The notes under the pieces are model-generated. The model saw only the letters and a list, made by a program, of their open reading frames with translations. It did no database searches and was not told the origin of the DNA. 64,000 nt of DNA. It comes from Leucobacter rhizosphaerae. Lineage in GTDB: Bacteria > Actinomycetota > Actinomycetes > Actinomycetales > Microbacteriaceae. The stretch is taken from positions 1,054,001 to 1,118,000 of the forward strand of contig NZ_CP095043.1 of NCBI RefSeq assembly GCF_022919175.1, read 5' to 3'. Of the stretch, positions 17,605 through 33,350 are shown piece by piece (the first letter of the stretch is position 1; each line of letters opens with the position of its first letter). Made by a program: the position numbers and the translations under genes.

Positions 17605-18390
17605 ATGCACAAGCCGCTCCTGGGGCACCCCGCGGTGCACGGCGACGGGGACGTCACCGGGCAGCAGGTCGGCGGGATCGCGCAGCGCATCGCGTCCGCG
17701 ATCTCCGTCGGCATGCTCACCGTGGGCGAGCGGCTGCCGCCCGAGGCGGAGCTCGCGAGCCAGTTCGGGATCGCGGTCGCGACCCTGCGCAAGGCGCTCG
17801 CGACGCTCCGCGCGCAGGGCATCGTCGAGACCCGGCGCGGCCGCAACGGCGGCACGTTCGTGGTGCAGGCGCCGTTCCCCTCGACCGAGTCGCTCACGTC
17901 GACCCTCCGCAGCACGAGCATCGTGGTGCTGCGCGACATCGCCGACGAGCATTCGGCGGTCTCGGGCATGGCGGCCCGACTCGCGGCCGAGCGCACACCG
18001 CCCGACTTCCGCACCCGCCTCGCGGAGCTCGCGTTCCGCGCTCGAGAAGCGCGCGGCGCCCAGGAGCTCTCGATGGCCGACAGCCGGTTCCACGTCGAGA
18101 TCGCGGTGCTGAGCCACTCCCAGCGCCTCCTCACCGCGGAGCAGGGTCTGCAGGCCGAGCTCGGCCCGTTCCTGTGGTGCGAGGACCTCACGCGCGCCTC
18201 CGGCCAGCTCGCGTTCACGGAACACCTGTCGCTGATCATGGCGATCGAGCAGCAGCGCCCCGATGACGCGCAGCGCATCGCGGTCGATCACGTCAGGGGG
18301 AACATCCGCATGATCATCGAAGCCAAACTGCGGCTCGGCGTCCGCGAGCTCCCGGCCCGCACGGCGCAGCGCACGGAGGCGGTGTCGTGA
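17605..18390 (+). CDS. GntR/FadR-family regulator of the catabolic island (probable)
   Basis: A 261-residue regulator. The winged helix-turn-helix spans about residues 20-85 (RLPPEAELASQFGIAVATLRKALATLRAQGIVETRRG) and is followed by an all-helical FCD-type ligand domain (about 110-240) with SRFHVEIAVLSHSQRLL. The ATG at 17605 begins eight bases after the kgd stop. It overlaps the next gene, a Cache-domain protein, by 4 nt, so the two are coupled. By position it is the only regulator in the 17.6-33.4 kb island and the best candidate to bind the shared ACATTCAC sites; this is not shown by the sequence. The ligand is unknown. Confidence 0.85.
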   Translation: MHKPLLGHPAVHGDGDVTGQQVGGIAQRIASAISVGMLTVGERLPPEAELASQFGIAVATLRKALATLRAQGIVETRRGRNGGTFVVQAPFPSTESLTSTLRSTSIVVLRDIADEHSAVSGMAARLAAERTPPDFRTRLAELAFRAREARGAQELSMADSRFHVEIAVLSHSQRLLTAEQGLQAELGPFLWCEDLTRASGQLAFTEHLSLIMAIEQQRPDDAQRIAVDHVRGNIRMIIEAKLRLGVRELPARTAQRTEAVS

Positions 18391-19130
18391 GCGGCGCGGG
18401 TTCGACCCCGCCGATGCCGGCTCCGGGTGCGGTGTCCGTCGACGAGACGCTCGATCTCCTCCGCAGCTGGTTCGCCGAGCGATTCGGGCACCTCCGCACG
18501 CTCGCCGACGAGTTGATCGCGTACCTCGGGTTCGACGCCGCGGGCAACATCGACCTGAGCGAGACCACCAAGCGCAAGCTCAAGGCCGCGGCCGTGCGCT
18601 TCCTCGCCGACAACGAGACCGTCGACGGCTGCGGCCTCATCTTCGCCCACTCGGCGCTCGGCACCGAGAACGGCCACCTCGAGTGGTGGGTGCGCGAGGA
18701 CGAGTCGCGCTTCGCGCGGTACTCCTTCGGTGTTGTGCCCGGCGCGGATCGGTACTACGACTACGAGCAGCACGAGTGGTTCATCCGCGCCTTCCACGAG
18801 GGCACGCCCGCCCTCGTGGGGCCGTACATCGACTACCTCGGCGTCGAGGCCTACGTAATGACCCTCACGGTGCCGGCCGAGATCGACGGCCGCCGGGTGG
18901 GCGCCGTCGGCAACGACATGCAGGTCGAGGATCTCGAGCGGGCGCTCATGCCGCTGCTCCTGCGGAGCCCCGTCGAGACCGTGCTGCTCGGGCGGCACGG
19001 CACGGTGCTCTTCGGCAACACCTCGCGCTTCCTCCCGGGCGACTGGGTGCCGCCCGTCGTCGACGGTTTCACCCGAGTACCGCTCGAACCGCTCTCGAGC
19101 GAAATCCAACTGCTCGTCGCGGCGGGCTAG
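18387..19130 (+). CDS. Soluble Cache-domain sensor-like protein
   Basis: A 247-residue protein starting with GTG inside the regulator's stop (GTGA overlap). The central part (about 80-195) resembles a PDC/Cache fold: YYDYEQHEWFIRAFHEG, then GPYIDYLGVEAYVMTLTVP, then RRVGAVGNDMQVEDLE. Cache domains usually sit outside the membrane in chemoreceptors and kinases. Here there is no signal peptide or membrane segment, so it should be cytoplasmic. An amphipathic helix-rich N-terminus (DETLDLLRSWFAERFGHLRTLADEL) precedes the domain. Coupling to a FadR-type regulator suggests an intracellular small-molecule sensor or co-regulator, which is an inference. Its stop shares a CTAG with the convergent hydrolase gene. 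Confidence 0.72.
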   Translation: MSGAGSTPPMPAPGAVSVDETLDLLRSWFAERFGHLRTLADELIAYLGFDAAGNIDLSETTKRKLKAAAVRFLADNETVDGCGLIFAHSALGTENGHLEWWVREDESRFARYSFGVVPGADRYYDYEQHEWFIRAFHEGTPALVGPYIDYLGVEAYVMTLTVPAEIDGRRVGAVGNDMQVEDLERALMPLLLRSPVETVLLGRHGTVLFGNTSRFLPGDWVPPVVDGFTRVPLEPLSSEIQLLVAAG

Positions 19131-19162
19131 CTGCTCGCCGCGGCGGGCTCGCTGCTCGCCGC
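19110..19162. repeat. 21-bp tandem repeat across two convergent stop codons
   Basis: CTGCTCGTCGCGGCGGGCTAG (19110-19130) recurs as CTGCTCGCCGCGGCGGGCTCG (19131-19151), and a third partial copy ends at 19162. Unit 1 carries the Cache gene stop (TAG) and, on the other strand, the stop of the hydrolase. The later units encode the Ala/Ser-rich C-terminus of the hydrolase. Confidence 0.8.
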
Positions 19163-19870
19163 CAGCTTCGCGAACCGGCGGGCCAGCTCCGACCACACGT
19201 CGGTGAGCGCGGGCTCGGCCTCGCGTACCCCGCGGATCACGGCGTCGCCCTCGATCCCGAGCTCGGCGAGGCTCTCCTCGTCCTCCTCCACCCACTCCGC
19301 CGCCGTCTGGCCGAGGGCCTCGGGGTGGAACTGCACGCCCCACGCGGCGGGGCCGACGCGGAAGGCCTGGTTCGCGCAGGCGGCGCTCGACGCGAGCAGC
19401 GTGGCCTGCTCGGGGAGGCGATCGGCCTCGAGGTAGTGCCACTGCACGACCGGCACGGAGGTCGCGCTGAGCTCGCCGAAGAGCGGGTCTCCCGCCGCGG
19501 TCTCGCTGAACGCGACGGAATGCAAGCCGATCTCGGGCCCCTCGGGCATCGTGCGCACGTGGCCGCCGGTCGCCGAGACCATGAGCTGCGCGCCGAGGCA
19601 GATCCCGAGCGTCGGGACCTGCTGCTCGATGCCGGTGGCGAGGAGGTGCCGCGTGGCGGGGAGCCAGGGCGAGGTGTCGTCCTCCATCGGGCCCATGGCA
19701 CCGCCGAGCACGATCAGGGCGTCGTAGCCGTCGAGCGACTCCGGCACGGCCCGTCCGACGTCGGGGCCGACGATGTCGAGCTCGGCACCGCCCTCGACCA
19801 GACTCGAGGTGAGCAGGCCGAGGCCGGCATTCTCCTGGTGCTCAACGACCAGCACACGTGCGCGACTCAT
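19127..19870 (-). CDS. Class I glutamine amidotransferase-like hydrolase
   Basis: A 247-residue class I GATase-fold protein with the nucleophile Cys in GICLGAQLM, the His-Glu pair in GVQFHPEALG, and VLVVEHQENAGLG at the start. It resembles GMP-synthase-like amidotransferases that act alone, such as gamma-glutamyl-amine or gamma-glutamyl-anilide hydrolases. The start at 19870 overlaps the upstream gene by 4 nt (ATGA). It is the last gene of the P450-GS-SBP-hydrolase operon. The probable role is removal of the gamma-glutamyl group from an oxidised intermediate, an inference from the GS-like gene. The last 15 residues are low-complexity Ala/Ser encoded by a tandem repeat. Confidence 0.8.
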   Translation of the reverse strand: MSRARVLVVEHQENAGLGLLTSSLVEGGAELDIVGPDVGRAVPESLDGYDALIVLGGAMGPMEDDTSPWLPATRHLLATGIEQQVPTLGICLGAQLMVSATGGHVRTMPEGPEIGLHSVAFSETAAGDPLFGELSATSVPVVQWHYLEADRLPEQATLLASSAACANQAFRVGPAAWGVQFHPEALGQTAAEWVEEDEESLAELGIEGDAVIRGVREAEPALTDVWSELARRFAKLAASSEPAAASS

Positions 19871-20580
19871 GTTGCGTCCCTTTCTGCGGCGCGATCCCGC
19901 GCCCGATCCACGATCCACCGGAAGATCGCGTGCTGTGTCACGTCGGTCGCCGCGGTGTCTTCCGGATGCCACTGTACAGCGATGAGGTCGGCGGTCGGGT
20001 GCTCGAGCGCCTCGACCACCCCGTCCGACGCCCGGCCCACGACCCGCAGGCCGTCGCCCACCCGGTCGACCGCCTGGTGGTGGTACGAGGAGACCGGCAG
20101 CTCGGACCGCCCGATCGCGGCGGCGAGCGCCGAGTCCGCGGCGAGCGTCACGTCGTGCACGCTGTTGCGGTGCGGACTGTCGGCGGGCACGTCTTGCACC
20201 AGGGTGCCGCCGTGCTCGACGTTCAGCAGCTGGAACCCGCGGCAGATCGCGAGCACGGGCACCCCCTGCGCGATCGCGGCCGCCATGAGGTCGGCCTCGA
20301 ACTGATCCTGCGCGGCGAAGTCGGCCGGGGAGGTCGCGGGATCGGGCTCCTGCCGGTAGCGCGCGGGATCGACGTCGGAGCCGCCCGGCACGAGCAGGCC
20401 GTCGAGATCCCGCACCCGCTCCTCGGCCGGCAGCGCGCTCTCCGCGAACAGGGTCAGCGGTTCCCCGCCGGCCCGGATCACGGAGCGCAGCACCGCGGCG
20501 GAGACCGCGCTGCCGTCGAAGCGCAGCCCGTGGATCTGGTTCGACCACATCCCGGTCACGCCGATCCGCGGGGTGCTCAC
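19867..20580 (-). CDS. Gamma-glutamyl-gamma-aminobutyrate hydrolase-like (peptidase C26)
   Basis: A 237-residue PuuD-type hydrolase. Seen features are GLLVPGGSDVDPARY, the nucleophile Cys in AICRGFQLLNVEHGGTL, SYHHQAVDRVG and the catalytic His-Glu in VQWHPEDT. The GTG at 20580 overlaps the upstream stop by 4 nt and the 3' end overlaps the next gene by 4 nt. E. coli PuuD releases GABA from gamma-glutamyl-GABA after a GS-like enzyme (PuuA) has glutamylated putrescine. The same logic fits here, but the substrate is unknown. A second C26 protein is at 26039-26833. Confidence 0.85.
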   Translation of the reverse strand: MSTPRIGVTGMWSNQIHGLRFDGSAVSAAVLRSVIRAGGEPLTLFAESALPAEERVRDLDGLLVPGGSDVDPARYRQEPDPATSPADFAAQDQFEADLMAAAIAQGVPVLAICRGFQLLNVEHGGTLVQDVPADSPHRNSVHDVTLAADSALAAAIGRSELPVSSYHHQAVDRVGDGLRVVGRASDGVVEALEHPTADLIAVQWHPEDTAATDVTQHAIFRWIVDRARDRAAERDAT

Positions 20581-21323
20581 GCGGCGCCGTTCCCCTCGAG
20601 CGCGGCGGCGGAGAGGGGGAAGGGCAGGAGCGGCATCCACTTCGTCCAGACCGCCTCGAGCGAGCCGTCGGCGATGACCGCCTCGAGCGCCGCGTTGATC
20701 TCGGACCGGAGCGCGTCGTTGCCCGGGGCGACCCCGATCCCCCAGCGATTGCCGGTGAGCACCGTGAAGGCCTCCACGAAGTCGGGGTCCTCCTGGCCGA
20801 GCGGGATCATCACGACGTCGTCGTCCACGAAGCCGTCGATCGCCCCGGAGCGGGTGGCCTCGATCATGTCACCGAAGACGTCGTCGCTCGCGCCGAAGCT
20901 CACGAGCTCGACGCCGGGGAACGTCTCGGCGAGCTTCATGTTCGTCGAGTTCGCGATCGCGCCGATCTTGTAGCCGGCGAGGGCGTCCGCGGAGCGCGCC
21001 GGATCGTCGGCCCGCACGATGAGCGTCTCGTTGAAGACCGCGTAGGGGTGCGTGAAGTCGACGAGCGCCGCGCGCTCCTCGGTCATGCCCTGACCGCACC
21101 AGACGGCGTCGGCGGCGCCGCTGCGCACGGACGGGATCATGTCGTCCCAGGGCACCATGACCCACTCGACGGCCGCGCCGAGCCGGTCGAAGACGAGCTG
21201 GGCGGCCTCGGGCTCGTAGCCGCCGCGCGTGCGCCCGTCGGTGCTCTTCGAGAAGAGCGGCAGCGCTTCCGAGTCGATGCAGGCGAGTCGGATGGTGCGG
21301 GTGGTGCGGGTGCTGTCGGTCAC
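20577..21323 (-). CDS. SBP_bac_3 solute-binding-fold protein without export signal
   Basis: A 248-residue protein of the amino-acid-type periplasmic-binding fold: GGYEPEAAQLVFDRLG, VPWDDMIPSVRSGAADA, GMTEERAALVDFTHPY and GNRWGIGVAPGNDALRSEINAAL are the usual family stretches. The GTG at 21323 overlaps the glutamine-synthetase-like stop by 4 nt (GTGA). The protein begins MTDSTRTTRTIRLACID with no signal peptide and no lipobox. A longer in-frame start at 21386 adds no signal either. No ABC permease or ATPase is nearby. It may therefore be a cytoplasmic ligand carrier, sensor or cyclohexadienyl-dehydratase-like enzyme rather than a transporter subunit. Function unknown. Confidence 0.75.
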   Translation of the reverse strand: MTDSTRTTRTIRLACIDSEALPLFSKSTDGRTRGGYEPEAAQLVFDRLGAAVEWVMVPWDDMIPSVRSGAADAVWCGQGMTEERAALVDFTHPYAVFNETLIVRADDPARSADALAGYKIGAIANSTNMKLAETFPGVELVSFGASDDVFGDMIEATRSGAIDGFVDDDVVMIPLGQEDPDFVEAFTVLTGNRWGIGVAPGNDALRSEINAALEAVIADGSLEAVWTKWMPLLPFPLSAAALEGNGAA

Positions 21324-22756
21324 GGAATTGCCTCCCAGTACTGATCGAATTCCCACTGCGTGATCAGGCCGCAGTAGCGAGCCCACTCATCCCGCTTGAG
21401 CTGGATGAAGATCTTGGTGAGCGCCTCGGGGATCGCGCCCATGAGGTACTCGTCGGCCTCGAAGGCCTCGATCGCCATGCCCAGGGTGTTCGGCACGACG
21501 ATGCCCGAGAGCACCTCGCTGTGCTCGCCGGGCTCCCCGGGGTCGAGCTTCGCCTCGAGCCCGTGCTCGATCGACGCGAGCAGGTAGAGGTGCGAGAGGT
21601 AGGGGTTCACGGAGGCGTCCGGCAGCCGGTACTCCATGCGCCCGTTCGAGGAGATCCGGATCGCCACCCCGCGGGTGTCGAGGCCCCAGTCGGCGCCGGA
21701 CGGCGCGAACTGCCCCGCGTCCCAGTACCGCTTGTAGGAGTTCACGGTGGATCCCATGACGAGCATCGAGCCCGGGGTGTGCAGCAGCATTCCGGCGATG
21801 GCGTGCCGGGCGAGCTCGGTGACGTGCAGCTCCACGCGGCCGTCCTCGATCACGTTCTCGGCCGTGCCGTCATCGGCGACCCGCCAGAGGCTGAGGTTGT
21901 GGTGGCAGCCGTTGCCCATCTTGCCGTTGTAGGGCTTCGGCATGAAGCTCGCCTGCAGGCCGAGCTCGCGCGCGACCTGCTTGCAGATCTGCCGGTAGGT
22001 GGTCATCCGCTCGGCGGTGAGATCCGCGCGGTCGTAGTTCCAGTTCAGCTCCACCTGCCCGTCGTCCTCGTAGTCCCCCTCGATCATGTCGAGTCCGAGC
22101 TCCTGGGCGTACGAGATGACCTTCTTGTACATGGGGCGCATCTTCTCGAGGTTCTCGACCTGATACGCGGGGCTCTGATCCTCCTTGGAGATGACCTCGG
22201 TGCCCGGGCCGCTCCACGTCATCTCCGGCTCGAGGCCGCTGCGCAGCTCGAGGCCCGTGCGCTCCGTGAATCCGGCGTGCGCGGCCTTGAAGAGGGCCCG
22301 GGTGTCGAGCGGCAGTAGGCGCCCACCGACCTCGCCGAGGTGCGGCGGCTCGTACGCGGTGCAGAAGATCCGCGCGACCTCCGGATCCCACGGCAGCACG
22401 TCGAAGGTCTCCGGCTCCGGGAGTCCCCAGAACTCGTGCGCGGCGACGCCTCCGCCGATGAGCTCGCCCTCGCGGCTCGTCTGAAGGTCGGTGAGCGCGG
22501 TGCGGTGGAACGCGATCCCCTTCTTCAGATTGCGCTCGAAGTGCTTCGCGGGCACGACCTTCGCGACGGTGCGCGATCCCACGGTCGGCAGCATATAGTA
22601 GATGTACTTCACGCCGTGCTCCCGGATCTTCGCGCCGAGGGCGGCGACGGTCTCCGGCCGGAGGTTCGCCTCCTGGTGCCGCGCGAAGGCGGTGTCGTCC
22701 GCGAGAATCTCGCGCAGCGCCGCGCCGAAGCGTCCGCCGGTCTTGAGGTCAGACAT
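21320..22756 (-). CDS. Glutamine-synthetase-like gamma-glutamyl-amine ligase
   Basis: A 478-residue protein of the glutamine synthetase fold. Recognisable parts are the beta-grasp N-domain, GLEPEMTW, EGDYEDDGQVELNWNY, the GNGCHHNLSLW stretch that replaces the usual GSGMHxHxSL, and NSYKRYWDAGQFAPS with AIRIS and MEYRLPDASVNPYL. The adenylylation-site Tyr motif of GlnA-1 is not seen. This is the divergence expected for enzymes that ligate glutamate to amines (PuuA, IpuC, gamma-glutamylanilide synthase). It is cotranscribed with the P450 upstream (30-bp gap) and three genes downstream. AAAGGA precedes the ATG. A genuine ammonia-using synthetase is less likely but not excluded. Confidence 0.82.
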   Translation of the reverse strand: MSDLKTGGRFGAALREILADDTAFARHQEANLRPETVAALGAKIREHGVKYIYYMLPTVGSRTVAKVVPAKHFERNLKKGIAFHRTALTDLQTSREGELIGGGVAAHEFWGLPEPETFDVLPWDPEVARIFCTAYEPPHLGEVGGRLLPLDTRALFKAAHAGFTERTGLELRSGLEPEMTWSGPGTEVISKEDQSPAYQVENLEKMRPMYKKVISYAQELGLDMIEGDYEDDGQVELNWNYDRADLTAERMTTYRQICKQVARELGLQASFMPKPYNGKMGNGCHHNLSLWRVADDGTAENVIEDGRVELHVTELARHAIAGMLLHTPGSMLVMGSTVNSYKRYWDAGQFAPSGADWGLDTRGVAIRISSNGRMEYRLPDASVNPYLSHLYLLASIEHGLEAKLDPGEPGEHSEVLSGIVVPNTLGMAIEAFEADEYLMGAIPEALTKIFIQLKRDEWARYCGLITQWEFDQYWEAIP

Positions 22757-22786: not shown

Positions 22787-24016
22787 TCACGCGCGGTCGC
22801 GCACGGTGAAGGTGATGGGGAGTCGCACGGGGCCGTGATTGCCCGAGTCCGGGAGCCAGGTGTCGCCGCCCGGGCAGGAGAGGTCCGTGAACGACTCGGC
22901 GAGGAGCGGGAGCGCGACGCTCATGTCGGCGCGGGCGATGTAGTGCCCGAGGCAGTGGTGCACGCCGCCGCCGAAGGTGTGGTGGGGCTTGCGGCCCTCC
23001 GCCTCGATGTCGATCTGGGGGTCGGGGTAGGCCTCGGGATCCGTGCCGCTCGACATCGTGAAGAGGTGCACGGTGGTGCCTTTCGCGATCCGCAGCCCCT
23101 GGTACTCGAAGTCCTCGTTCGCCTCGCGGGTCACCCAGCGGGTCGTCGGGTTGGCCCGCAGCGCCTCTTCGAGCGCCGGCTTCGCCAGCTCCGCCGGGCG
23201 CTCGGCCAGCAGCTCCCACTGCTCCGGGTTCCGCATGAAGGTCTGCAGGATGAGTCCGAGCTGGTTGCGGGTGGTGTCCATGCCGCCGAACAGCATCAGT
23301 ACGAGCGCGTTGCGGAGCTCGGCGTCCGTGAGCTTGTCTCCGGCCTCGGAGAACTGCACGAGCCGCGACACCACGTCCTGACCGGGGTCGGCTTTGCGCT
23401 CGCGGATCAGCTGATCGACGAAGTCGTAGAGCTCCTGCACCGCCACGTCGATCCGCTCGATGTCCTCCTTGATGGATACGCTGAGCGCGTAGCCGACCGT
23501 GTTCGCCCGGTCCGCGATGAACGGCCAGTGCTCGTGCGAGAGTCCCATCATCGCGCACAGGGCACGGGTGGCGAACGGCTCGGCGAAGTCGCCGACGAAC
23601 TCGATCTCCTCGCCGCTCGCCGCCTTCGCCTTCATGGCGTCGATGAGCTCGGTGGCGATCTCCGCGAACTCGGGCTCCAGGCGGCGGGCCACCGTCGGGG
23701 AGAACGCGGGGTTGAGGAGGCGGCGGATGCGGTGATGCTCCTCCCCTTCCAGCACCAGGAGATTCTTGGACCACCAGTCGTGGAACAGCCCGGAGTGCAC
23801 GCCGTGGTGATCCGGCCACTTCGCGCTGCCCTGGTTCAAGCTCGGGTGCTTGAGCAGCTCCGAGACCTCGCGGTACCGGAGCACGCCGTAGCCGTAGTTC
23901 GTCTCCGCGTACCAGCTGCGCTCGCGCGCTTCGCGCACCTGCTCCGAGCTCATGGCGAACTCGGGAGCGGCGATATCGAGGTACGGCACTTCGGTGTCGT
24001 CGGTCTGGGTGGCCAT
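22787..24016 (-). CDS. Cytochrome P450 monooxygenase
   Basis: A 409-residue soluble bacterial P450. The I-helix oxygen motif is GGMDTT (residues 244-249), the ExxR pair is E284/R287, and the haem loop is FGGGVHHCLGH with Cys355 as the iron ligand. No membrane anchor is present. It leads the operon with the GS-like gene, starts after AAGGAG, and is divergent from a reductase and flavodoxin that could feed it electrons. Morpholine and piperidine P450s (CYP151) of mycobacteria are also found near a GS-like gene, so oxidation of an amine or its gamma-glutamyl derivative is a reasonable inference. The CYP family cannot be assigned without alignment. Confidence 0.93.
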   Translation of the reverse strand: MATQTDDTEVPYLDIAAPEFAMSSEQVREARERSWYAETNYGYGVLRYREVSELLKHPSLNQGSAKWPDHHGVHSGLFHDWWSKNLLVLEGEEHHRIRRLLNPAFSPTVARRLEPEFAEIATELIDAMKAKAASGEEIEFVGDFAEPFATRALCAMMGLSHEHWPFIADRANTVGYALSVSIKEDIERIDVAVQELYDFVDQLIRERKADPGQDVVSRLVQFSEAGDKLTDAELRNALVLMLFGGMDTTRNQLGLILQTFMRNPEQWELLAERPAELAKPALEEALRANPTTRWVTREANEDFEYQGLRIAKGTTVHLFTMSSGTDPEAYPDPQIDIEAEGRKPHHTFGGGVHHCLGHYIARADMSVALPLLAESFTDLSCPGGDTWLPDSGNHGPVRLPITFTVRDRA

Positions 24017-24140: not shown

Positions 24141-24166
24141 TCGCAATAAAACATTCACATAGTGAA
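24141..24166 (+). promoter_or_regulatory. Shared ACATTCAC block upstream of the reductase operon (site B)
   Basis: On the plus strand this reads TCGCAA, four bases, ACATTCAC, ATAG. It overlaps a perfect palindrome TTCAC-ATA-GTGAA (24154-24166), a plausible regulator site. It lies about 95 bp upstream of the reductase start and points the same way relative to its gene as sites A and C do to theirs. The 24017-24260 gap holds nothing else recognisable. Confidence 0.55.
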
Positions 24167-24260
24167 GATTTACGGGTACACTGGCCTCACCGGGTCCCCA
24201 GATAGGCTGCTGCGGACCCCTTCTCTCGCACCTCAGTCGCCCGCACGCAAAGGAGCCGCG

Positions 24261-25538
24261 ATGCCCGGATCCCCCGGCCCCCAGATCGCCATCGTGGGCA
24301 GCGGCCCCTCGGGGTGCTACCTGGCGCAGGCGCTCCTTCGGAGCCTGCCGCACGCCGAGATCACGATCATCGATCGCCTCGCGTCGCCGTTCGGCCTGAT
24401 CCGCTACGGCGTCGCCGCCGACCATCAGCACACGAAGGCCATCACCCGTCAGTTCGAGCGCCTGTTCCAGGCGGGCAATGTTCGCTTCGCTGGCAACGTC
24501 GAGCTGGGGCGCGACGTGGGTCTCGACGAGCTCCGCGCGCACTTCGACGCCGTGGTGCTCGCAACCGGGCTGAGCGCGGATCGTGCGCTCGCGCTCCCGG
24601 GCGGCGAGCTGCCCGGGGTGATCGGGGCCGGCACCGTGACCCGGGCGCTGAATGCGCACCCGGACGAGCCGACGACACTGCCCGACCTCGGCTCCGACGT
24701 CGTGCTGATCGGCGCCGGGAACGTCGCGCTCGATCTCCTGCGGTTTCTCGTGAAGGCCGAGAGCGACTACGACGCCAGCGACATCGCGGATCCCGCGCTC
24801 GAGCGGTATCTCGGCAGCCCGGCCGCACGCGTGACCGTCGCGAGCCGGTCCGATGCTGCGCACGCGAAGGGCGACGCGCAGATGCTCCGCGAGCTCGCCG
24901 CGCTCCCCCGTGCCGTCTACCGGTTGCCCGACGACCCCGGCAGTGCGCTCGCCGACGACGGCGCGCTCGACCGCGCCCAGGCCGGCCGCCTCGCCGCGGT
25001 CGAGGAGCTCGTCGCGAGCGAGCGCCCCGCGCATCCCGGCCCCGCGGTCACCCTGCGATTCGGGGTGATCCCCGTCCGGATTCTCGGCGAGGAGCGCGTC
25101 GAGGCCGTGGAATTCGCCGCGGGCGACGACGTGGTCGTCGTGCCGGCGACGAGCGTCATCACCGCCGTGGGGTTCGCTGCGTCCGACCCCCTCGCCGAGC
25201 TGCTCGCCGACCACTCGGAGGTCGGGGGGATCGAGCCGGGCCTGTACCGCACCGGGTGGGCCAAGCGCGGCCCGAGCGGTGGGATCCCTGAGAACCGCGC
25301 CTGCGCCAAGTCGGTCGCCGAGGAGATCGTCGCGGACGTCACGTCGGGCGCACTCCCGGGTTCGGAGACTAGACTCGGCTTCGACGGGCTGCCGGCCGAT
25401 GTCCGCGCCGCGTCCGTCGACTACGCGCAGTGGCTCCGACTCGAGCAGCACGAGCGCGAGCTCGCCCCGTCGGGCCGGATCCGCCGCAAGATCTCAGACC
25501 ACGACCGGATGGTCGCCATCGCACACGACCGGGCGTAG
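24261..25538 (+). CDS. FprA-type ferredoxin/adrenodoxin NADP+ reductase
   Basis: A 425-residue flavoprotein that moves electrons from NADPH through FAD to a small carrier. The FAD motif GSGPSG is at residues 13-18, GLIRYGVAADHQ follows, the NADPH motif GAGNVALD is at 151-158, and the C-terminal GWAKRGPSGGIPENRACAK matches the family's GWxKRGPxGxI signature. The ATG at 24261 is chosen because AAAGGAG lies six bases upstream and the Rossmann strand begins soon after. A flavodoxin follows 39 bp later, so flavodoxin rather than ferredoxin is the likely partner, serving the divergent P450. XplB of the XplA/XplB system is of this reductase type. Confidence 0.92.
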   Translation: MPGSPGPQIAIVGSGPSGCYLAQALLRSLPHAEITIIDRLASPFGLIRYGVAADHQHTKAITRQFERLFQAGNVRFAGNVELGRDVGLDELRAHFDAVVLATGLSADRALALPGGELPGVIGAGTVTRALNAHPDEPTTLPDLGSDVVLIGAGNVALDLLRFLVKAESDYDASDIADPALERYLGSPAARVTVASRSDAAHAKGDAQMLRELAALPRAVYRLPDDPGSALADDGALDRAQAGRLAAVEELVASERPAHPGPAVTLRFGVIPVRILGEERVEAVEFAAGDDVVVVPATSVITAVGFAASDPLAELLADHSEVGGIEPGLYRTGWAKRGPSGGIPENRACAKSVAEEIVADVTSGALPGSETRLGFDGLPADVRAASVDYAQWLRLEQHERELAPSGRIRRKISDHDRMVAIAHDRA

Positions 25539-25577
25539 ACCGGGCCCGTGCACACCCCAGACGAGAGGAAGACCCCC

Positions 25578-26042
25578 GTGAAGTTCACCGTTCTCTACGG
25601 CACCGAATCCGGCAACTCCGAGCTCATCGCCGAGGATCTCGGCGCCAAGCTCCGCGAGACCGAGCTCGACGTCGAGGTCGCCGACCTGCAGGACACCGAT
25701 CCCGCGAGCCTGGGCGCCGACCGCTTCGTGATCGTGGTCTGCTCCACGCACGGCGACGGCGACCTGCCGAACACGGCGATCCCGTTCGCGGAGGCCTTCG
25801 ATGCGGCACTCCCCGACCTGACGGGGATGCGCTACGCCATGTTCGGGCTCGGTGACACGTTCTACGAGGCCACCTACAGCCAGGGCAGCGAGCACATCGA
25901 CCGCCGGTTCGCCGCGCAGGGCGCGATCCGTGTTGGCGAGTACGGTCGGCACGACGCCTCGTCGTGGGACCTCGGCAGCGACGTCGCGCTCGAGTGGCTC
26001 CCGGGCGTGCTCGAGGCCGCCGCCGAGCCCGCCTCCGCCTAG
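25578..26042 (+). CDS. Flavodoxin (FMN electron carrier), probable P450 partner
   Basis: A 154-residue short-chain flavodoxin. The FMN phosphate loop is TVLYGTESGNSE near the N-terminus, the isoalloxazine loops are CSTHGDGDLPNTA and FGLGDTFYEATYSQG. The GTG at 25578 has AGAGGAAG about seven bases upstream and places the first strand (KFTVLYG) at the N-terminus; a GTG ten codons earlier is less likely. It is cotranscribed with the FprA-type reductase and opposes the P450 operon. A stand-alone flavodoxin as P450 donor is known from cindoxin of the cineole system and, fused, from XplA. Its stop shares CTAG with the convergent hydrolase. Confidence 0.88.
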   Translation: MKFTVLYGTESGNSELIAEDLGAKLRETELDVEVADLQDTDPASLGADRFVIVVCSTHGDGDLPNTAIPFAEAFDAALPDLTGMRYAMFGLGDTFYEATYSQGSEHIDRRFAAQGAIRVGEYGRHDASSWDLGSDVALEWLPGVLEAAAEPASA

Positions 26043-26833
26043 GCTCTCCTCGCCCGCTCCACGAGCGCCCCGAACAGGCGCGCCCGATCCTCGAGGTCGG
26101 CCGCCGACTCCTCCGGGTGCCACTGGATGCCGAGCACCCAGCTCGCCGTGCGGTGCTGCGTGCCCTCGACGATGCCGTCGTGGGCACGAGCGGTCACGCG
26201 CAGCGCCGGGGCGACCTCGGCGACGGCCTGGTGATGCCCGTTCCGCACGGTCACCGCGGACGTGCCGAGGATCCGGGCGATCTCGGAACCCTCCTCGAGC
26301 CGCACCTCCTCGTCGATGAAGAGCGGGGATCCGGCGCCGCCGCGGTGCTGCGACCAGTTCTCGATGTCCGGGATCAGCGTGCCCCCGAACGCCACGTTCA
26401 GCAGCTGCGACCCCCGGCAGATCGCGAGCATCGGAAGATCCCGCGCCACGACCTCGTGCAGGAGCTCGATGCAGTACCGATCAGCGCGGAGGTCGACGCC
26501 GTACTCGTTCGCGGGTGGCGGGCCGGTGTACCCGTAGCACGAGCCGTCGACGTCTCCGCCGCCCAGGAAGAGCACCGCCGACGCCCCTGCGAGCACCGCG
26601 TCCGACGGCGTCAGCGAGACGGCCGCGGAGTCCACCAGGCGCGGACGCCCGCCCGCGGCACGCACGGCCTCGAACGCGGTGAGGGTGAACTCCCGCGTCA
26701 GGTCGTACGACAGCTGATTCATGCCGGGAGTGTTGAGCGAGACCACGACCGGGATGAGCGGACCCGCGGGATCCTCCGGGGACTCCCCCGTTCCCGGAGC
26801 GAAGAGTGCGGGATCGACCGCCAGATCGGCCAT
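26039..26833 (-). CDS. Gamma-glutamyl-gamma-aminobutyrate hydrolase-like (second peptidase C26)
   Basis: A 264-residue C26 hydrolase with the nucleophile Cys in AICRGSQLLNVAFGGTLIPD, NGHHQAVAEVAP and the His-Glu pair in IQWHPEES. It also carries an NEYGVDLRADRYCIELLHEV insert before the nucleophile. The ATG at 26833 is chosen over one at 26842 because GGAAAGGA is 8 bases upstream. It is clearly diverged from the C26 protein at 19867-20580, so this is not a recent duplication. It lies downstream of the permease, separated by a strong stem-loop. It probably cleaves a gamma-glutamyl intermediate; two such enzymes could serve two steps or two substrates. Confidence 0.85.
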   Translation of the reverse strand: MADLAVDPALFAPGTGESPEDPAGPLIPVVVSLNTPGMNQLSYDLTREFTLTAFEAVRAAGGRPRLVDSAAVSLTPSDAVLAGASAVLFLGGGDVDGSCYGYTGPPPANEYGVDLRADRYCIELLHEVVARDLPMLAICRGSQLLNVAFGGTLIPDIENWSQHRGGAGSPLFIDEEVRLEEGSEIARILGTSAVTVRNGHHQAVAEVAPALRVTARAHDGIVEGTQHRTASWVLGIQWHPEESAADLEDRARLFGALVERARRA

Positions 26834-26871
26834 CGGACACATCCTTTCCGCAGCGGGTCGCTGCGCAGAGA

Positions 26872-26908
26872 GAACTCCGGGCGGCCCCGCTGGAGCCGCC
26901 CGGAGTTC
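26872..26908 (-). terminator. Perfect 14-bp stem-loop between permease and hydrolase
   Basis: GAACTCCGGGCGGC (26872-26885) pairs with GCCGCCCGGAGTTC (26895-26908) around a 9-nt loop. It sits in the 91-bp gap between two genes on the same strand. A U-run is lacking, so it may be a partial terminator or an mRNA-stabilising hairpin that sets the permease/hydrolase ratio. Confidence 0.7.
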
Positions 26909-26924
26909 GGAGGAGCCGGTCGAT

Positions 26925-28424
26925 CTACGGGGCGACCGTCTTGATGGCCCCGCTGGCGTCGCCCGAGGGGGCGTCACCGCGCGCGTAGGCCTTGGAGACC
27001 AGCATGTAGATCCAGCCGACGACCACCACACCGACGGTGGTCATGATCAGCAGGTAGTCCTCCGCCCAGCCGCCGCCCGTGGGGCGCGGCCAGAGGATGT
27101 TGATGATCGCGATCGCACCCCAGAGCAGGGCGATGATGTTCACCGGGTAGGCCCAGGCGCCGAGGGTGAACCGACCCGCAGGCTTCCAGCCGAGGATGCG
27201 GGCCCGGAGTGCCGCCAGCACGACCATGCCGAAGCCGACGTAGATGCCGACCGTGCCGAAGCCGACCATCGCGGTGAGCGCCTCGGCGAGCAGGAGCGAG
27301 AACACGACCACGGCCGCGGGGAAGAGACCCGCCGCGAGCAGCGCGTTCTGCGGCACGTGCCGCGCCTCGTTGAAGCGGGCGAGCATCGTCGATCCCGGCA
27401 GGAACCGGTCACGCGCCATCGAGTAGAGCAGACGGCTCGCCGCGGCCTGCAGGCTCGTGATGCACGAGATGAAGGCGATGACGATGACGAGCATGACGAC
27501 CGGGAAGATCGGGCCGAAGGCATTGTGCAGCAGGTCGCCGATCGGATCCGTGGACTCGCCGCTCGCGACCGCTGCAAAGTCGGGCACCGCGAGCACCAGC
27601 GAGAAGACCAGGAGGTTCGCGGCGAAGCCGCCGATGTAGAGGGTGATCCGCATGGCGCGCGGCACCCGGCGACTGGGGTCCTTGATCTCCTCGGCGACGT
27701 CGCCGTTGGCTTCGAAGCCGTAGTAGGCGAAGAGGCCGATCAGCGCCGCGGCGGCGAAGGCTCCGAAGTAGCCGCCCGGGGCGTCGTTGCCGATGCCCTG
27801 GTTGTCGAAGAGCACCGAGAAGTCGTGCACCCGGCCGAAGATGAGCAGGTAGCCGCCGATGACCACGGAGCCCACGAGCTCGGCGATCAGGCCGATCGTC
27901 GCGGCCATGCTGAGCACGCGCGTCCCCATGAAGTTGAGGACCGTCGCGACGAGCAGCGTGCCGAGTGCGATGAGCACCGTGCCGCCGGCGTCGACCACCC
28001 CGCCGAAGACCGAAGCGACGAAGGGTGCGGCACCGTAGGCGACCGCGGCGATCGTGCCGATCAGGGCGACGACGTAGATCCAGCCGTTCATCCAGGCCCA
28101 CTTGCGGCCCCACAGTCGGCGCGACCAGGGGTAGACGCCACCCGCGACCGGGTAGTTCGAGACGACCTCACCGAAGATGAGGGCGACGAAGAACTGTCCG
28201 ACGAGGGCGATGACGAGCGCCCAGGCCATGGGCGGCCCCGCGGTCCCGAGCGAAATCGCGAACATCGAGTAGACGCCGGCGATCGGTGAGAGGTAGGTGA
28301 ATCCGAGCGAGACGTTTCCCCAGAAACTCATCTCTCGCTTGAAGGTCGTGTCGTAGGTGTAGCCGAGAGACGCGAGGTGGGCGGCATCCTCGTCGTGCTC
28401 GACTGGTGGGTTCGCGGTATCCAT
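26925..28424 (-). CDS. APC-family amino acid/amine permease
   Basis: A 499-residue integral membrane protein with about 12 hydrophobic segments. It starts with the cytoplasmic stretch SLGYTYDTTFKREMSFWGN followed by FTYLSPIAGVYSMFA, and has GEVVSNYPVAGGVYPWSRRL and YYGFEANGDVAEEIKDPSRRVPRAM, all typical of the amino acid-polyamine-organocation superfamily. By analogy with PuuP it would import the amine processed by the neighbouring GS-like and P450 enzymes. It carries the same upstream promoter block as the P450 and reductase operons. GGGAG precedes the ATG at a longish spacing. Substrate not predictable. Confidence 0.9.
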   Translation of the reverse strand: MDTANPPVEHDEDAAHLASLGYTYDTTFKREMSFWGNVSLGFTYLSPIAGVYSMFAISLGTAGPPMAWALVIALVGQFFVALIFGEVVSNYPVAGGVYPWSRRLWGRKWAWMNGWIYVVALIGTIAAVAYGAAPFVASVFGGVVDAGGTVLIALGTLLVATVLNFMGTRVLSMAATIGLIAELVGSVVIGGYLLIFGRVHDFSVLFDNQGIGNDAPGGYFGAFAAAALIGLFAYYGFEANGDVAEEIKDPSRRVPRAMRITLYIGGFAANLLVFSLVLAVPDFAAVASGESTDPIGDLLHNAFGPIFPVVMLVIVIAFISCITSLQAAASRLLYSMARDRFLPGSTMLARFNEARHVPQNALLAAGLFPAAVVVFSLLLAEALTAMVGFGTVGIYVGFGMVVLAALRARILGWKPAGRFTLGAWAYPVNIIALLWGAIAIINILWPRPTGGGWAEDYLLIMTTVGVVVVGWIYMLVSKAYARGDAPSGDASGAIKTVAP

Positions 28425-28492: not shown

Positions 28493-28518
28493 CTATATGT
28501 GAATGTTTTAACTTGCAA
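28493..28518 (-). promoter_or_regulatory. Shared ACATTCAC promoter block upstream of the permease (site C)
   Basis: On the minus strand this reads TTGCAA, six bases, ACATTCAC, one base, TATAGG, the same spacing as site A. It lies 68 bp upstream of the permease ATG. The surrounding 264-bp gap (28425-28688) is unusually A+T-rich for this genome. Confidence 0.6.
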
Positions 28519-28561: not shown

Positions 28562-28587
28562 CAATTCATGCAAATGTGAATGAATTG
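28562..28587. promoter_or_regulatory. Operator-like palindrome upstream of the permease (site D)
   Basis: CAATTCAT (28562-28569) and ATGAATTG (28580-28587) form a perfect 8-bp inverted repeat around a 10-nt centre. On the minus strand it contains CATTCACAT, which is also found in sites B and C. It lies about 45 bp upstream of site C and could be an auxiliary operator. Confidence 0.5.
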
Positions 28588-30569: not shown

Positions 30570-30651
30570 CCACCCGCACGTGCTTATTGGTCAACCCGCC
30601 AGTAAGGGCTAGACTGAGGCGACTCACGCGATCGATCCGGAGGAGACACTG

Positions 30652-31677
30652 ATGACCGCATGGCGCATGCCCATCGAGGGGCACGAACAGGAACGGCTGT
30701 GGATGGCCTGGCCGACCTCGGGTTACACCCTGGGCGACACCGAGGCCGAGGTCGAGGAGGCGCGGCGCACCTGGGCCGCCGTCGCGAACGCGGCGAGCGA
30801 GTACGAGGCGGTCACCGTCGTCGTCAACCCGGGTGACGAGGACATCGCCGCGAGGTATCTCGCGTCGCAGATCGACCGTCACGTCGCGCCGCTCAACGAC
30901 GCCTGGATGCGCGACATGGGTCCGAGCTTCGTCATCGGCGACAACGGCGAGCTCGGGGCGGTGAACTTCGTGTTCAACGGCTGGGGTGGTCAGGAGTGGG
31001 CCGAGTGGGAGCACGATCAGCACATCGGCCGGATCGTGGCCGAGGCGTCGGGTGCCACGCTCATCAACTCCGAGATGACCAACGAGGGCGGCGGGATCCA
31101 GGTCGACGGCACCGGACGCGTCATCCTCACCGAGACCGTACAGCTCGATCCGGGCCGCAACCCCGGGTGGACCCGTGCGCAGGTCGAGGCCGAGCTCGCC
31201 CGCACGATCGGCACGACGAGCGCCATTTGGCTCCCTCGCGGCCTGTTCCGCGACCACGACACGTTCGGCACACGCGGGCACTCCGACATCCTCGCCGCGT
31301 TCGCGACCCCGAGCCAGCTCCTCATGCACCGGCAGGACTCCGAGTCGCACCCCGATCACCAGATCGCCCGGACCAATCGCGACGTCGTGGAGCGCACCCT
31401 CGACGACACCTCGGCCGGCTTCGAGATCATCGACATGCCCGCGCCCACGGTGCTGCGCGACGCCGAGGGGTTCGTGGACTACAGCTACATCAACCACCTC
31501 GTGATCAACGACGCGGTGCTCGCGTGCGCGTTCGACGACCCCGCCGACGATCGGGCGCTCGCCACCCTGCGCGAGGTCTACCCCGGCCGCACCGTCGTCG
31601 GCATCGACGCGCGCCCGCTGTTCGCCCGCGGCGGCGGCATCCACTGCATCACGCAGCAGCAGCCGAAGGCCGCCTGA
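30652..31677 (+). CDS. aguA: Agmatine deiminase
   Basis: Converts agmatine (decarboxylated arginine) to N-carbamoylputrescine and ammonia. The 341-residue protein shows the Porphyromonas-type peptidyl-arginine deiminase fold motifs: NDAWMRDMGPSF, NEGGGIQVDG, the GHSD motif and the catalytic Cys in GGGIHCITQQQP. All core residues seem intact. The ATG follows GGAGGAG. It is next to an ornithine cyclodeaminase homologue and an aldehyde dehydrogenase, suggesting polyamine or guanidino-compound breakdown. No N-carbamoylputrescine amidase is in the window. A relative acting on a different guanidine compound is possible. Confidence 0.9.
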   Translation: MTAWRMPIEGHEQERLWMAWPTSGYTLGDTEAEVEEARRTWAAVANAASEYEAVTVVVNPGDEDIAARYLASQIDRHVAPLNDAWMRDMGPSFVIGDNGELGAVNFVFNGWGGQEWAEWEHDQHIGRIVAEASGATLINSEMTNEGGGIQVDGTGRVILTETVQLDPGRNPGWTRAQVEAELARTIGTTSAIWLPRGLFRDHDTFGTRGHSDILAAFATPSQLLMHRQDSESHPDHQIARTNRDVVERTLDDTSAGFEIIDMPAPTVLRDAEGFVDYSYINHLVINDAVLACAFDDPADDRALATLREVYPGRTVVGIDARPLFARGGGIHCITQQQPKAA

Positions 31678-31740: not shown

Positions 31741-31749
31741 ACATTCACA
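31741..31749 (+). promoter_or_regulatory. ACATTCACA match upstream of the aldehyde dehydrogenase
   Basis: The nonamer ACATTCACA, shared with sites B and C, lies 78 bp upstream of the aldehyde dehydrogenase start and in the same orientation relative to its gene. The flanking TTGC-like and TATAG-like boxes are absent, so it could be a chance match. Confidence 0.3.
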
Positions 31750-31826
31750 CTCGGCAACCCCGTCTGACCTGCGAGACTGCAGTGACGCCACGCGCTGATG
31801 GCGACCGCTCGACACGAAGGAACCCC

Positions 31827-33350
31827 ATGCCTGCCGCTGCCCTCACCCCGGAACTCGAACTCGTCGTCGCGCGCGCCGCGGCCGCCGCGCCCGCGTTCGC
31901 CGCGACCAGTCCGACGGAGCGGGGCCGCGCGATCGTCGCCGTCGCCGATGCGCTCGAGGGCGCGAAGGCGTCTCTCGTCGAGATCGCCGCGCGCGAGACC
32001 GGGCTCACCGAGGCCCGGCTCACCGGGGAGGTGACGCGGACCGCGGTGCAGCTCCGTCTCTTCGCCGACACGCTCGTGCACGGCGGCTACCTCGACGCAC
32101 GCATCGACCCCGCGGACGACGACTTCGCGCTCGGCGTCCGCCCCGACGTGCGCCGCGTGCTGATCCCAGTCGGTCCGGTCATCAACTTCTCGGCGTCGAA
32201 CTTCCCCTTCGCCTTCTCCGTCCTGGGGGGCGATTCGGCGTCGATCCTGGCCGCCGGCTGCCCGCTCATCGTGAAGGCGCACTCGGGGCACCCGGAGCTC
32301 TCCGACGCCACGGCCGAGGTCGCCGCGACCGCCCTGCGCGCCGCGGGCATGCCGGAGGGGGTGTTCCAGCTGATCCACGGCCGTGAGGCGGGGGTCGCCG
32401 TGCTGCAGGATCCGCGGGTGCGCGCCGGCGCCTTCACCGGCTCGATCAGCGTCGGCCGCTTGCTCGCCGACCTCGCGGCGAATCGTCCGGCTCCGATCCC
32501 GTTCTTCGGCGAGCTCGGCAGCGTCAACCCGGTCTTCCTCACCGCCGCGGCGATCGCGGAGCGCGCTGCGGAGATCGCGAGCGGATACGTCACGAGCGTG
32601 TCCGGCTCCGCGGGGCAGCTCTGCACGAAGCCCGGCTTCGCGTTTGTGCCGGAGGACTCCGAGCTTCCGGCCGCGATCGCCGCGGCCGCCGTCGACCTCG
32701 CCGAGCACCGGCTGCTCGACCCCCGGATCTCTCGGAGCTTCGACGAGCGCCGTCAGGCGATCCTCTCGGCACCCGGGGTCCGGCCCATCGTCGAGGGCGG
32801 CATCCGCTTCGACGACGCGGGGCACGGCTGGGCCACCCCGACGATCGTCGCGGTGTCCCTCGAGGACTTCCGCACGAGCCGGGAGGCGCTCGTCGAGGAG
32901 GCGTTCGGCCCCCTCTCCATCGTCGTGGAGACGCCCGATGGCACCGACCTCGCCGCGCTCGTGCCGGAGTTCTTCGAGGGCAACCTCACGGGAACGCTGC
33001 ACGTGAGCGAGGCCGAAGGTGCGGGATCGACCGCCAACGCCCCGGCCCTCCGCGCGCTCGTCGAGGCGCTCAGCCAGCAGGTCGGCCGGGTCCTCTTCAA
33101 CGGCTGGTCGACCGGCGTGGCCGTCACACCCGCCCAGCAGCACGGCGGCCCGTGGCCCGCGACGACCAACGACACGAGCACTTCCGTCGGCACCGCGGCG
33201 ATCACCCGCTTCCTCCGGCCCGTCGCGTACCAGAACGCTCCGGCCGCGTTCCTGCCGCTCGCCCTCCAGGACGCGAACCCGCTGGGGGTCCCGCAGGCGA
33301 TCGCCCCCGCGGGCGAATCGCGGAGCTGGGGCAGCGCCGCAACCGCCTAG
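31827..33350 (+). CDS. NAD(P)-dependent aldehyde dehydrogenase, 2-oxoglutarate semialdehyde type
   Basis: A 507-residue aldehyde dehydrogenase. The coenzyme motif FSASNFPFAFSVLGGDSAS, FTGSISVGR, the general-base Glu in FFGELGSVNPVF and the catalytic Cys in SAGQLCTKPGF are all present. The ASNFPFAFSVxGGD variant is typical of 2,5-dioxovalerate (alpha-ketoglutaric semialdehyde) and related dehydrogenases rather than betaine-type enzymes. The ATG at 31827 follows GAAGGA; upstream reading frame is shadow of agmatine deiminase. It could oxidise the aldehyde made by the P450 or an amine oxidase step, like PuuC in the Puu pathway. That link is inference. Confidence 0.88.
   Translation: MPAAALTPELELVVARAAAAAPAFAATSPTERGRAIVAVADALEGAKASLVEIAARETGLTEARLTGEVTRTAVQLRLFADTLVHGGYLDARIDPADDDFALGVRPDVRRVLIPVGPVINFSASNFPFAFSVLGGDSASILAAGCPLIVKAHSGHPELSDATAEVAATALRAAGMPEGVFQLIHGREAGVAVLQDPRVRAGAFTGSISVGRLLADLAANRPAPIPFFGELGSVNPVFLTAAAIAERAAEIASGYVTSVSGSAGQLCTKPGFAFVPEDSELPAAIAAAAVDLAEHRLLDPRISRSFDERRQAILSAPGVRPIVEGGIRFDDAGHGWATPTIVAVSLEDFRTSREALVEEAFGPLSIVVETPDGTDLAALVPEFFEGNLTGTLHVSEAEGAGSTANAPALRALVEALSQQVGRVLFNGWSTGVAVTPAQQHGGPWPATTNDTSTSVGTAAITRFLRPVAYQNAPAAFLPLALQDANPLGVPQAIAPAGESRSWGSAATA

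What the first reader, a model, noticed from the sequence alone, without database searches (positions are those of the whole stretch)
17605..33350. P450-based gamma-glutamylation pathway for an unknown amine
In one island I see a permease, a GS-like ligase, a P450 with its own reductase and flavodoxin, three amidotransferase-fold gamma-glutamyl hydrolases and an aldehyde dehydrogenase. This is the part list of the E. coli Puu pathway (PuuP, PuuA, PuuB, PuuC, PuuD), except that no PuuB-type flavin oxidase is present. The P450 could be the oxidation step on a gamma-glutamyl-amine. Mycobacterial morpholine/piperidine P450 genes also lie near a GS-like gene, and aniline and isopropylamine degraders use GS-like ligases. 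The combination with flavodoxin, a soluble solute-binding protein and a soluble Cache protein is not one I know to be described.
Basis: partly seen in the sequence, partly recalled or inferred. Interest (0 to 1): 0.85.

Follow-up and report, generated by a model that had tools for sequence, protein, structure and literature searches.

The report
P450 cluster for degrading cyclic amines
A conserved bacterial gene cluster looks like a pathway that opens ring-shaped amines with a P450 enzyme and then handles the product as a glutamate conjugate, with its own amine sensor; related clusters are partly described in mycobacteria and Gulosibacter.

Summary
The island is real and behaves as one unit. 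At 17.4-28.4 kb of a Leucobacter-like chromosome lie GntR, a soluble Cache protein, a class-I amidotransferase, two C26 hydrolases, an SBP-fold protein without evident signal peptide, a GS-like ligase, a P450, an FprA-like reductase, a flavodoxin and a permease. Of 83 P450 loci, 65 hold the GS; of these 60 hold the SBP, 60 a C26/GATase, 56 GntR and Cache, 53 the permease. Of 18 loci without GS none holds a similar SBP, C26, Cache or permease. AAAACATTCAC occurs twice in the genome, both here. The P450 is 75% identical to one of Gulosibacter molinativorax, whose two such P450s are published at 52-53% to PipA and MorA. So the amine is probably a cyclic secondary amine, and the P450 probably acts before gamma-glutamylation. 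Newer points: the redox partner was swapped to flavodoxin, the Cache protein models as an amine-binding domain, and RDX genes xplAB sit in a relative of this cluster. The chemistry is inferred; a published rival route through a lactam exists.

The parts
17605..18390 (+). GntR/FCD regulator (ORF opens at 17386; HTH at residues 97-159 of that ORF, so the true start is probably nearer 17605)
   Evidence: Pfam GntR 54.8 bits, FCD 48.3 bits; directly upstream of Cache in 56 of 56 loci that hold both
18387..19130 (+). Soluble dCache protein, proposed cytosolic amine sensor for the GntR
   Evidence: Pfam dCache_1 32.5 bits, below the curated cut-off of 45; AlphaFold2 mean pLDDT 91.6; top folds are largely amine-binding dCache domains McpU-putrescine, CqsR, TlpQ
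19127..19870 (-). Class-I glutamine-amidotransferase-like protein (C and HPE motifs present); ORF runs to 20548 but the domain lies in its last part; upper limit approximate
   Evidence: Pfam GATase 70.5 bits, C26 31.4 bits; CLGAQ and GVQFHPE in the sequence
19867..20640 (-). Peptidase_C26 gamma-glutamyl hydrolase-like protein with CRGFQ and WHPE motifs
   Evidence: Pfam C26 178.7 bits; PDB relatives include PuuD 6vtv; motifs
20577..21323 (-). SBP-family-3 fold without evident signal peptide; keeps R105 and D189 of the amino-acid site (numbering of the ORF that opens at 21386; true start probably near 21323)
   Evidence: AlphaFold2 mean pLDDT 92.1; closest folds are amino-acid-binding SBPs
21320..22756 (-). 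GS-like ligase, nearest solved relatives glutamate-methylamine ligase and a type III glutamate-ammonia ligase entry
   Evidence: PDB 9qur E 3e-54, 7cql E 7e-50; E176, E178, E230, E236, H285, E375 conserved in at least 95% of 65 rows
22787..24016 (-). P450 of the CYP151 (PipA/MorA) kind
   Evidence: 71-75% to seven Brevibacterium/Gulosibacter/Zimmermannella rows, 50-54% to 13 mycobacterium-like orthologues; tree
24162..25538 (+). FprA/adrenodoxin-reductase-like NAD(P)H reductase
   Evidence: PDB 1cjc E 2e-46, FprA 1lqt E 7e-41
25548..26042 (+). Flavodoxin, nearest solved relative cindoxin
   Evidence: PDB 4oxx (Cindoxin) E 7e-24
26039..27031 (-). Second Peptidase_C26 hydrolase (domain starts at residue 93, true start further in)
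   Evidence: Pfam C26 149.6 bits; CRGSQ and WHPE
26925..28424 (-). APC-family amino-acid/amine permease
   Evidence: Pfam AA_permease_2 152 bits
24084..24094 (-). Shared DNA element, P450 side (AATACATTCAC)
24148..24158 (+). Shared DNA element, reductase side (AAAACATTCAC)
28499..28509 (-). Shared DNA element upstream of the permease (AAAACATTCAC)
28576..28586 (-). Weaker copy of the element upstream of the permease (2 mismatches)

Best explanation
The cluster is a chromosomal catabolic pathway for a cyclic secondary amine (pyrrolidine, piperidine, azepane or the like). Proposed working: the permease brings the amine in; the soluble dCache protein senses it and, with the GntR regulator, controls three transcription units that share one DNA element. 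The reductase passes electrons through the flavodoxin to the CYP151-type P450, which hydroxylates the carbon next to nitrogen; the ring opens to an omega-amino aldehyde. The GS-like ligase caps the freed amine with glutamate, which keeps the aldehyde from closing again to the cyclic imine; an aldehyde dehydrogenase oxidises it, and a C26 hydrolase releases the amino acid and glutamate. The lower half would thus work like the Puu pathway, with the P450 entering at the aldehyde level. The SBP-fold protein probably binds the gamma-glutamyl intermediate through its amino-acid site. Shown here: gene content, conservation, kinship, the shared element, predicted folds, conserved sites. Inferred: substrate, order of steps, roles of Cache and SBP.
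For: Conserved set in 65 GS-bearing loci of 83. None of the 18 loci without GS holds a similar SBP, C26/GATase, Cache or permease. Mycobacterium-like loci keep the set: GntR and Cache in 16 of 16, an ALDH in 14 of 16, a CoA-transferase in 11 of 16, a ferredoxin between P450 and GS in 12 of 20 loci checked. Two Gulosibacter molinativorax P450s are published at 52-53% to PipA/MorA; one (bioI) and its reductase are up more than 6 log2 on molinate against LB, and GS transcripts are also up. GS nearest to glutamate-methylamine ligase with the likely catalytic residues kept. C26/GATase motifs in 105 of 107 ORFs. Cache model ranks amine-binding dCache domains at the top. AAAACATTCAC twice in the genome, both here.
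Against: No enzyme or growth data exist here. For Gulosibacter the published proposal is another route: hydroxylated azepane oxidised to caprolactam and then hydrolysed, and its second P450 (pipA) with reductase was not significantly induced. Another paper lists cyp151 of M. vanbaalenii PYR-1 among PAH-degradation monooxygenases (passages), so the family does not fix the substrate; nor do two Streptomyces plasmid relatives beside biosynthetic genes. The GS falls far below the NCBIfam cut-offs of the four GS models it matched. The window's ALDH is not shared outside Leucobacter and was found in 7 of 23 Leucobacter loci. PipA/MorA sequences were not compared directly. The DNA element is in 18 of 34 loci before the P450 and 4 of 30 before the permease.
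Confidence: 0.55

Rival explanations
1. One reading: the GS-like ligase first glutamylates a primary or secondary amine, and the P450 then oxidises the gamma-glutamyl-amine, replacing PuuB.
For: GS is held by 65 of 83 P450 loci, and C26/GATase by 60 of these. The GS is nearest to ligases for small free amines.
Against: Recombinant MorA with its redox partners oxidises morpholine itself, as reported in PMC9477822. Relatives of the P450, most at 44-51%, occur without GS.
Confidence: 0.15
2. Lactam route: the P450 product (cyclic hemiaminal) is oxidised to a lactam, which is opened by a lactamase; the GS-like gene only assimilates the ammonium set free, as the Gulosibacter authors propose.
For: Published proposal for azepane with caprolactam as intermediate; dehydrogenase, hydantoinase-like and GS transcripts rise on molinate.
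Against: The genome has five other GS-like genes; this one is nearest to a methylamine ligase and travels with gamma-glutamyl hydrolase-like genes, which neither a lactam route nor ammonium assimilation needs. No lactamase was found among the window ORFs scanned.
Confidence: 0.15
3. Substrate is an N-methylated or other tertiary amine: the P450 demethylates it and the ligase captures the small primary amine (methylamine) as gamma-glutamylmethylamide.
For: Nearest solved GS relative is a glutamate-methylamine ligase. Paracoccus TOH's related cluster has a serine hydroxymethyltransferase next to it.
Against: The closest P450s with reported substrates act on ring amines. Methylglutamate-pathway genes were not searched for.
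Confidence: 0.1
4. The P450 is a biosynthetic enzyme of an unknown natural product.
For: Two Streptomyces plasmid P450s inside this clade lie among ectA/ectB-like, adenylation and carrier-protein genes.
Against: No biosynthetic family among the 20 window ORFs scanned; permease, regulator and hydrolases point to catabolism. The other loci were not annotated in full.
Confidence: 0.03

Closest known systems
CYP151 systems PipA (M. smegmatis) and MorABC (Mycobacterium HE5)
   Same: P450 of the same kind by published identities of Gulosibacter relatives (52-53%); P450-ferredoxin(-reductase)-GS order in mycobacterium-like relatives
   Different: Here the redox partners are an FprA-like reductase and a flavodoxin; C26, SBP and Cache genes have, as far as I recall, not been discussed for those systems (the pipA paper is not held)
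Gulosibacter molinativorax BioI and PipA clusters (molinate/azepane, PMC9477822)
   Same: A P450 of that species is 75% identical to the window's (P0096; that it is BioI or PipA is inferred); reductase, electron-transfer protein and GS nearby
   Different: That paper reads the GS as ammonium assimilation and proposes a lactam route; word searches of its main text find no flavodoxin, glutamyl, amidotransferase, Cache or permease
xplAB locus of RDX plasmid pGKT2 (Gordonia KTR9)
   Same: GntR (42%), Cache (29%), P450 (51%) and GS (57%) homologues lie upstream of XplB, the GS in one open frame with it
   Different: XplA is a flavodoxin-P450 fusion whose P450 is only 24% identical; its flavodoxin belongs to another lineage; SBP and C26 were not found in the 37-kb stretch
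E. coli Puu putrescine pathway
   Same: Same logic of gamma-glutamylation, aldehyde oxidation and C26 hydrolysis
   Different: No PuuB in the island; GS and C26 fall far below the PuuA and PuuD cut-offs
P450cin system (cindoxin)
   Same: Flavodoxin nearest to cindoxin
   Different: Different P450 and substrate (recalled)

Membership tests
CYP151 P450 family | More than 40% identity to a named CYP151 (nomenclature rule recalled) | tested here: inconclusive
   PipA/MorA sequences not compared directly; 75% to a G. molinativorax P450, and that species' two such P450s are published at 52-53% to PipA and MorA; 50-54% to 13 mycobacterium-like orthologues
CYP151 P450 family | Haem-thiolate P450 with Cys motif and I-helix Thr | tested here: met
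   FGGGVHHCLG at 348, GGMDT at 244 of the window protein (the family-wide pattern in that call was ill-chosen and is not used)
CYP151 P450 family | Oxidises morpholine, piperidine or pyrrolidine | not testable with these tools
   No assay
Puu pathway | PuuA equivalog (NF045547) | tested here: not met
   168.9 bits against a cut-off of 650
Puu pathway | PuuB-type FAD oxidase in the cluster | tested here: not met
   No DAO match between 17605 and 33350
Puu pathway | PuuD equivalog (NF008471) | tested here: not met
   75.7 and 67.4 bits against a cut-off of 266; C26 domain itself present
type III GS / gamma-glutamylmethylamide synthetase | TIGR03105 equivalog cut-off | tested here: not met
   262.8 bits against 469.6, though methylamine ligase is nearest in the PDB
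XplA/XplB | Flavodoxin fused to the P450 | tested here: not met
   Separate genes in the window; XplA P450 domain 24% identical
dCache_1AM amine sensor | Aromatic W, aromatic pair, S/T and terminal Asp at PctD-like spacing | tested here: inconclusive
   W100, T159 and D177 in 57 of 57 rows, W131 in 52 of 57; compared by spacing with positions printed in PMC10104139, not by direct alignment; the PctD R103/D133 pair not tested
dCache_1AA amino-acid sensor | Arg two residues before the motif Trp (position recalled) | tested here: not met
   R in 1 of 57 rows

The most novel reading that the evidence does not exclude
A complete, so far unassembled pathway type: P450 ring opening feeding a gamma-glutamyl shuttle, controlled by a free cytosolic dCache amine sensor coupled to a GntR regulator, with an SBP fold recruited inside the cell to hold or convert the gamma-glutamyl intermediate; and plasmid clusters of this type are the ground in which the RDX-degrading xplAB genes were assembled, the GS having been fused to XplB.
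Probability: 0.35. Interest if true: 0.75.

Novelty: new variant of a known kind. Interest (0 to 1): 0.55.

Why it matters
It turns scattered notes on a GS-like gene near morpholine and piperidine P450s into a testable pathway with a defined gene set, predicts why a ligase and a hydrolase are needed, and gives two unusual proteins (cytosolic dCache and SBP) a checkable role. It also offers a context for the origin of xplAB, whose ancestry is, as far as I recall, unsettled. If right, it helps to predict which bacteria clear cyclic amines (drug and herbicide fragments, corrosion inhibitors) from water.

Tried and rejected
Derivation of XplA's flavodoxin from a Leucobacter-type flavodoxin: rejected. 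XplA's flavodoxin domain is up to 62-63% identical to free-standing flavodoxins, several of them named as mycobacterial, but 42% to the window's, and the window-type flavodoxins form a separate starred group (24 of the 120 listed homologues were put into that tree, themselves picked by likeness to XplA). XplB's nearest other listed relative is 53% identical (best 120 of 1172 listed), the window's reductase 42%.

Orphan secondary-metabolite P450: thought unlikely because of the conserved neighbourhood, although two Streptomyces plasmid P450s in this clade are of that sort.

Gapped palindromes before the P450: weak (best in 4 of 34 loci against at most 2 in 20 shuffles); the direct element found next is stronger. 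It was picked by eye from the same sequences, so the genome-wide counts are the fairer test, yet these words too were chosen from the sites.

Control weaknesses. Of the 18 loci without GS, one (L055) is only 31% identical and one (L059) bears an annotated APC permease and FCD regulator beside its P450; the permease is not similar enough to the window's to be counted. Two of the 18 stretches are short (11.5 and 14 kb). The hydropathy test for signal peptides is crude: the permeases' own first 45 residues exceed the same mark in only 1 of 53, so it has no positive control.

Literature. Ten searches. Passages read: PMC9477822, PMC10104139, PMC10820124 (not used), PMC10301208, PMC8197338 (a table listing two CYP151 members of subfamily C in Alphaproteobacteria). 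All other papers were seen as listings only. Not held. Statements on cyp151C, on a published GS-XplB fusion and on the history of xplAB are recalled and come from no call.

Not done: direct comparison with PipA/MorA letters; GS phylogeny against PuuA, IpuC and TdnQ/AtdA1; search for the element in other whole genomes; search for methylglutamate-pathway or lactamase genes.

Rows dropped: SBP conservation used 46 rows (45 orthologues of 60 loci plus the window), the rest having stops from over-extended starts or lengths out of range; C26/GATase motifs used 107 of 121 ORFs; in the P450 tree ORFs with a stop were cut at it and two long ones (L047, L053) shortened; five ALDH hits that overlie the deiminase gene were dropped by hand.


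Full report
What is there. The window lies in a 3.34-Mb single-contig genome whose nearest named relatives by the P450 are Leucobacter. Between 17.4 and 28.4 kb, Pfam and PDB searches give, in order: GntR/FCD regulator and soluble Cache protein (+ strand); a class-I amidotransferase, a C26 hydrolase, a family-3 SBP, a GS-like ligase and a P450 (- strand); an FprA-like reductase and a flavodoxin (+); a second C26 hydrolase and an APC permease (-). The genes at 28.7-33.4 kb (cupin, SnoaL-like, cyclodeaminase, agmatine deiminase-like, ALDH) were met as close orthologues only in Leucobacter loci.

Is it one unit? The P450 orthologue occurs in 18 of 37 genomes of the genus at 77% identity or more (a nineteenth genome has a 47% relative). 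GntR lies directly upstream of Cache in 56 of 56, GS directly upstream of SBP in 57 of 60, and SBP upstream of C26/GATase in 55 of 59. As an internal control, the 18 P450 loci without GS hold similar SBP, C26/GATase, Cache and permease genes in 0 of 18 each, and GntR in 1; one of them, L059, does have an annotated APC permease of another kind. Twenty-three of the loci are Leucobacter, so the number of independent cases is smaller than the counts; but the set or most of it recurs in Brevibacterium, Gulosibacter, Arthrobacter, Paeniglutamicibacter and Actinomadura and in an unnamed genus that I take for Mycobacterium from genome size and P450 number (P450 in 33 of 297 genomes; clusters).

Aldehyde dehydrogenase. 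A close orthologue of the window's ALDH lies in 7 of 23 Leucobacter loci. A more distant ALDH lies in 3 of 11 other loci of the flavodoxin clade and in 22 of the 31 remaining GS loci; in all 32 of 65, after dropping 5 false hits over the deiminase gene.

A regulon mark. In the divergent P450/reductase region of 34 loci, CATTCAC occurs 24 times where the background rate of the same loci (0.039 per 360 bp) predicts about 1.3, in 18 of the 34 loci; it occurs upstream of the permease in 4 of 30. In the window, AAAACATTCAC with up to 2 mismatches matches six times against 0.92 expected, four of them in these two regions. In the whole genome the exact word occurs twice, both here, and ACATTCACNTATA occurs twice, both here. 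I chose the words after seeing the sites. Whether this is an operator or a promoter is open.

Which P450? The midpoint-rooted tree of 85 rows (83 loci, window, XplA) puts the window among the Leucobacter P450s, next to Gulosibacter and Brevibacterium. The loci with reductase plus flavodoxin sit among loci with a ferredoxin (12 of 20 checked) and a ferredoxin reductase (14 of 65 GS loci), so I read the redox partner as swapped on the way; 14 of 65 show neither pair. Two alphaproteobacterial loci have long P450 ORFs (962-963 aa from the start used); the one scanned, L047, is fused to a flavodoxin-reductase. PMC9477822 (passages read) reports two Gulosibacter molinativorax P450s, 72% identical to each other, 52-53% to PipA (induced by piperidine) and MorA (oxidises morpholine with its partners); one, with its reductase, is up more than 6 log2 units on molinate against LB, the other not significantly. 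A P450 of that species is 75% identical to the window's. The window's P450 is 50-54% identical to 13 mycobacterium-like orthologues, as one would expect of PipA/MorA; those two sequences themselves I did not compare. Against a single substrate for the family: PMC10301208 lists cyp151 of M. vanbaalenii PYR-1 among PAH monooxygenases (passages), and two Streptomyces plasmids have a relative among biosynthetic genes.

How it may work. The ligase is nearest in the PDB to a glutamate-methylamine ligase and keeps the residues I take for the metal site (roles recalled), but falls below the cut-offs of the four curated GS models it matches. The genome has five other GS-like genes at 35% identity or less, so this is probably not the housekeeping enzyme. 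With C26 hydrolases that keep their motifs the simplest reading is a gamma-glutamyl shuttle. Since MorA acts on the free amine and P450s of this family also occur without GS, I place the P450 first: ring hydroxylation, opening to an amino aldehyde, capping with glutamate, oxidation, hydrolysis. The ALDH (14 of 16) and CoA-transferase (11 of 16) beside mycobacterium-like loci would fit a dicarboxylic end product. The order is inference. The published rival for azepane goes through caprolactam, with the GS as ammonium assimilation; it leaves the conserved C26 genes unexplained.

The RDX link. On pGKT2, GntR (42%), Cache (29%) and P450 (51%) homologues stand before a GS homologue (57% over residues 22-409) that shares one open frame with XplB, followed by XplA. 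Its P450 groups with four mycobacterium-like P450s (support 99/62) whose clusters show no ferredoxin between P450 and GS. XplB and XplA's flavodoxin are not close to the window's reductase and flavodoxin. So xplAB appears to have been built into a cluster of this type rather than evolved from the Leucobacter form.

Verdict. A real, conserved, probably co-regulated cluster, most likely for amine catabolism; a new variant of the CYP151 cyclic-amine systems. Interest 0.55.

Noticed in passing
L056:19160-21748: On RDX plasmid pGKT2 a GS homologue without its last 70 or so residues shares one open frame with XplB, behind GntR, Cache and a P450 related to the window's. A GS-XplB fusion is, as I recall, in print.
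   Followed up: partly
L058:3979-13123 and L061:3878-13146: Two Streptomyces plasmids carry a P450 of this clade among ectA/ectB/ectoine-synthase-like, diaminopimelate-decarboxylase-like, adenylation and carrier-protein genes: perhaps a natural-product cluster that borrowed a catabolic P450.
   Followed up: no
L091:8243-10494: A small actinobacterial genome (one of 15 hits in one genus of 1.0-1.8-Mb assemblies, several incomplete) has a 44-45% identical P450 directly after a proline-racemase-family gene; the neighbourhood was read in this one only.
   Followed up: no
L047:9689-12886: Ciceribacter has a fusion of this P450 type with a flavodoxin-FAD-NAD reductase, next to two GS-like genes and an ALDH.
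   Followed up: no
L057:5058-19832: Paracoccus sp. TOH plasmid p2 has a related P450 cluster with two GS, two amidotransferases, two ALDHs, serine hydroxymethyltransferase and an FAD-binding oxidoreductase.
   Followed up: no
window 39890-39998 (-): TPP riboswitch (Rfam RF00059, 60.5 bits), outside the cluster.
   Followed up: no
window 29595-31677: Ornithine-cyclodeaminase-family gene followed by an agmatine-deiminase-family gene beside the cluster; the second recurs in 9 Leucobacter loci, the first in one.
   Followed up: no
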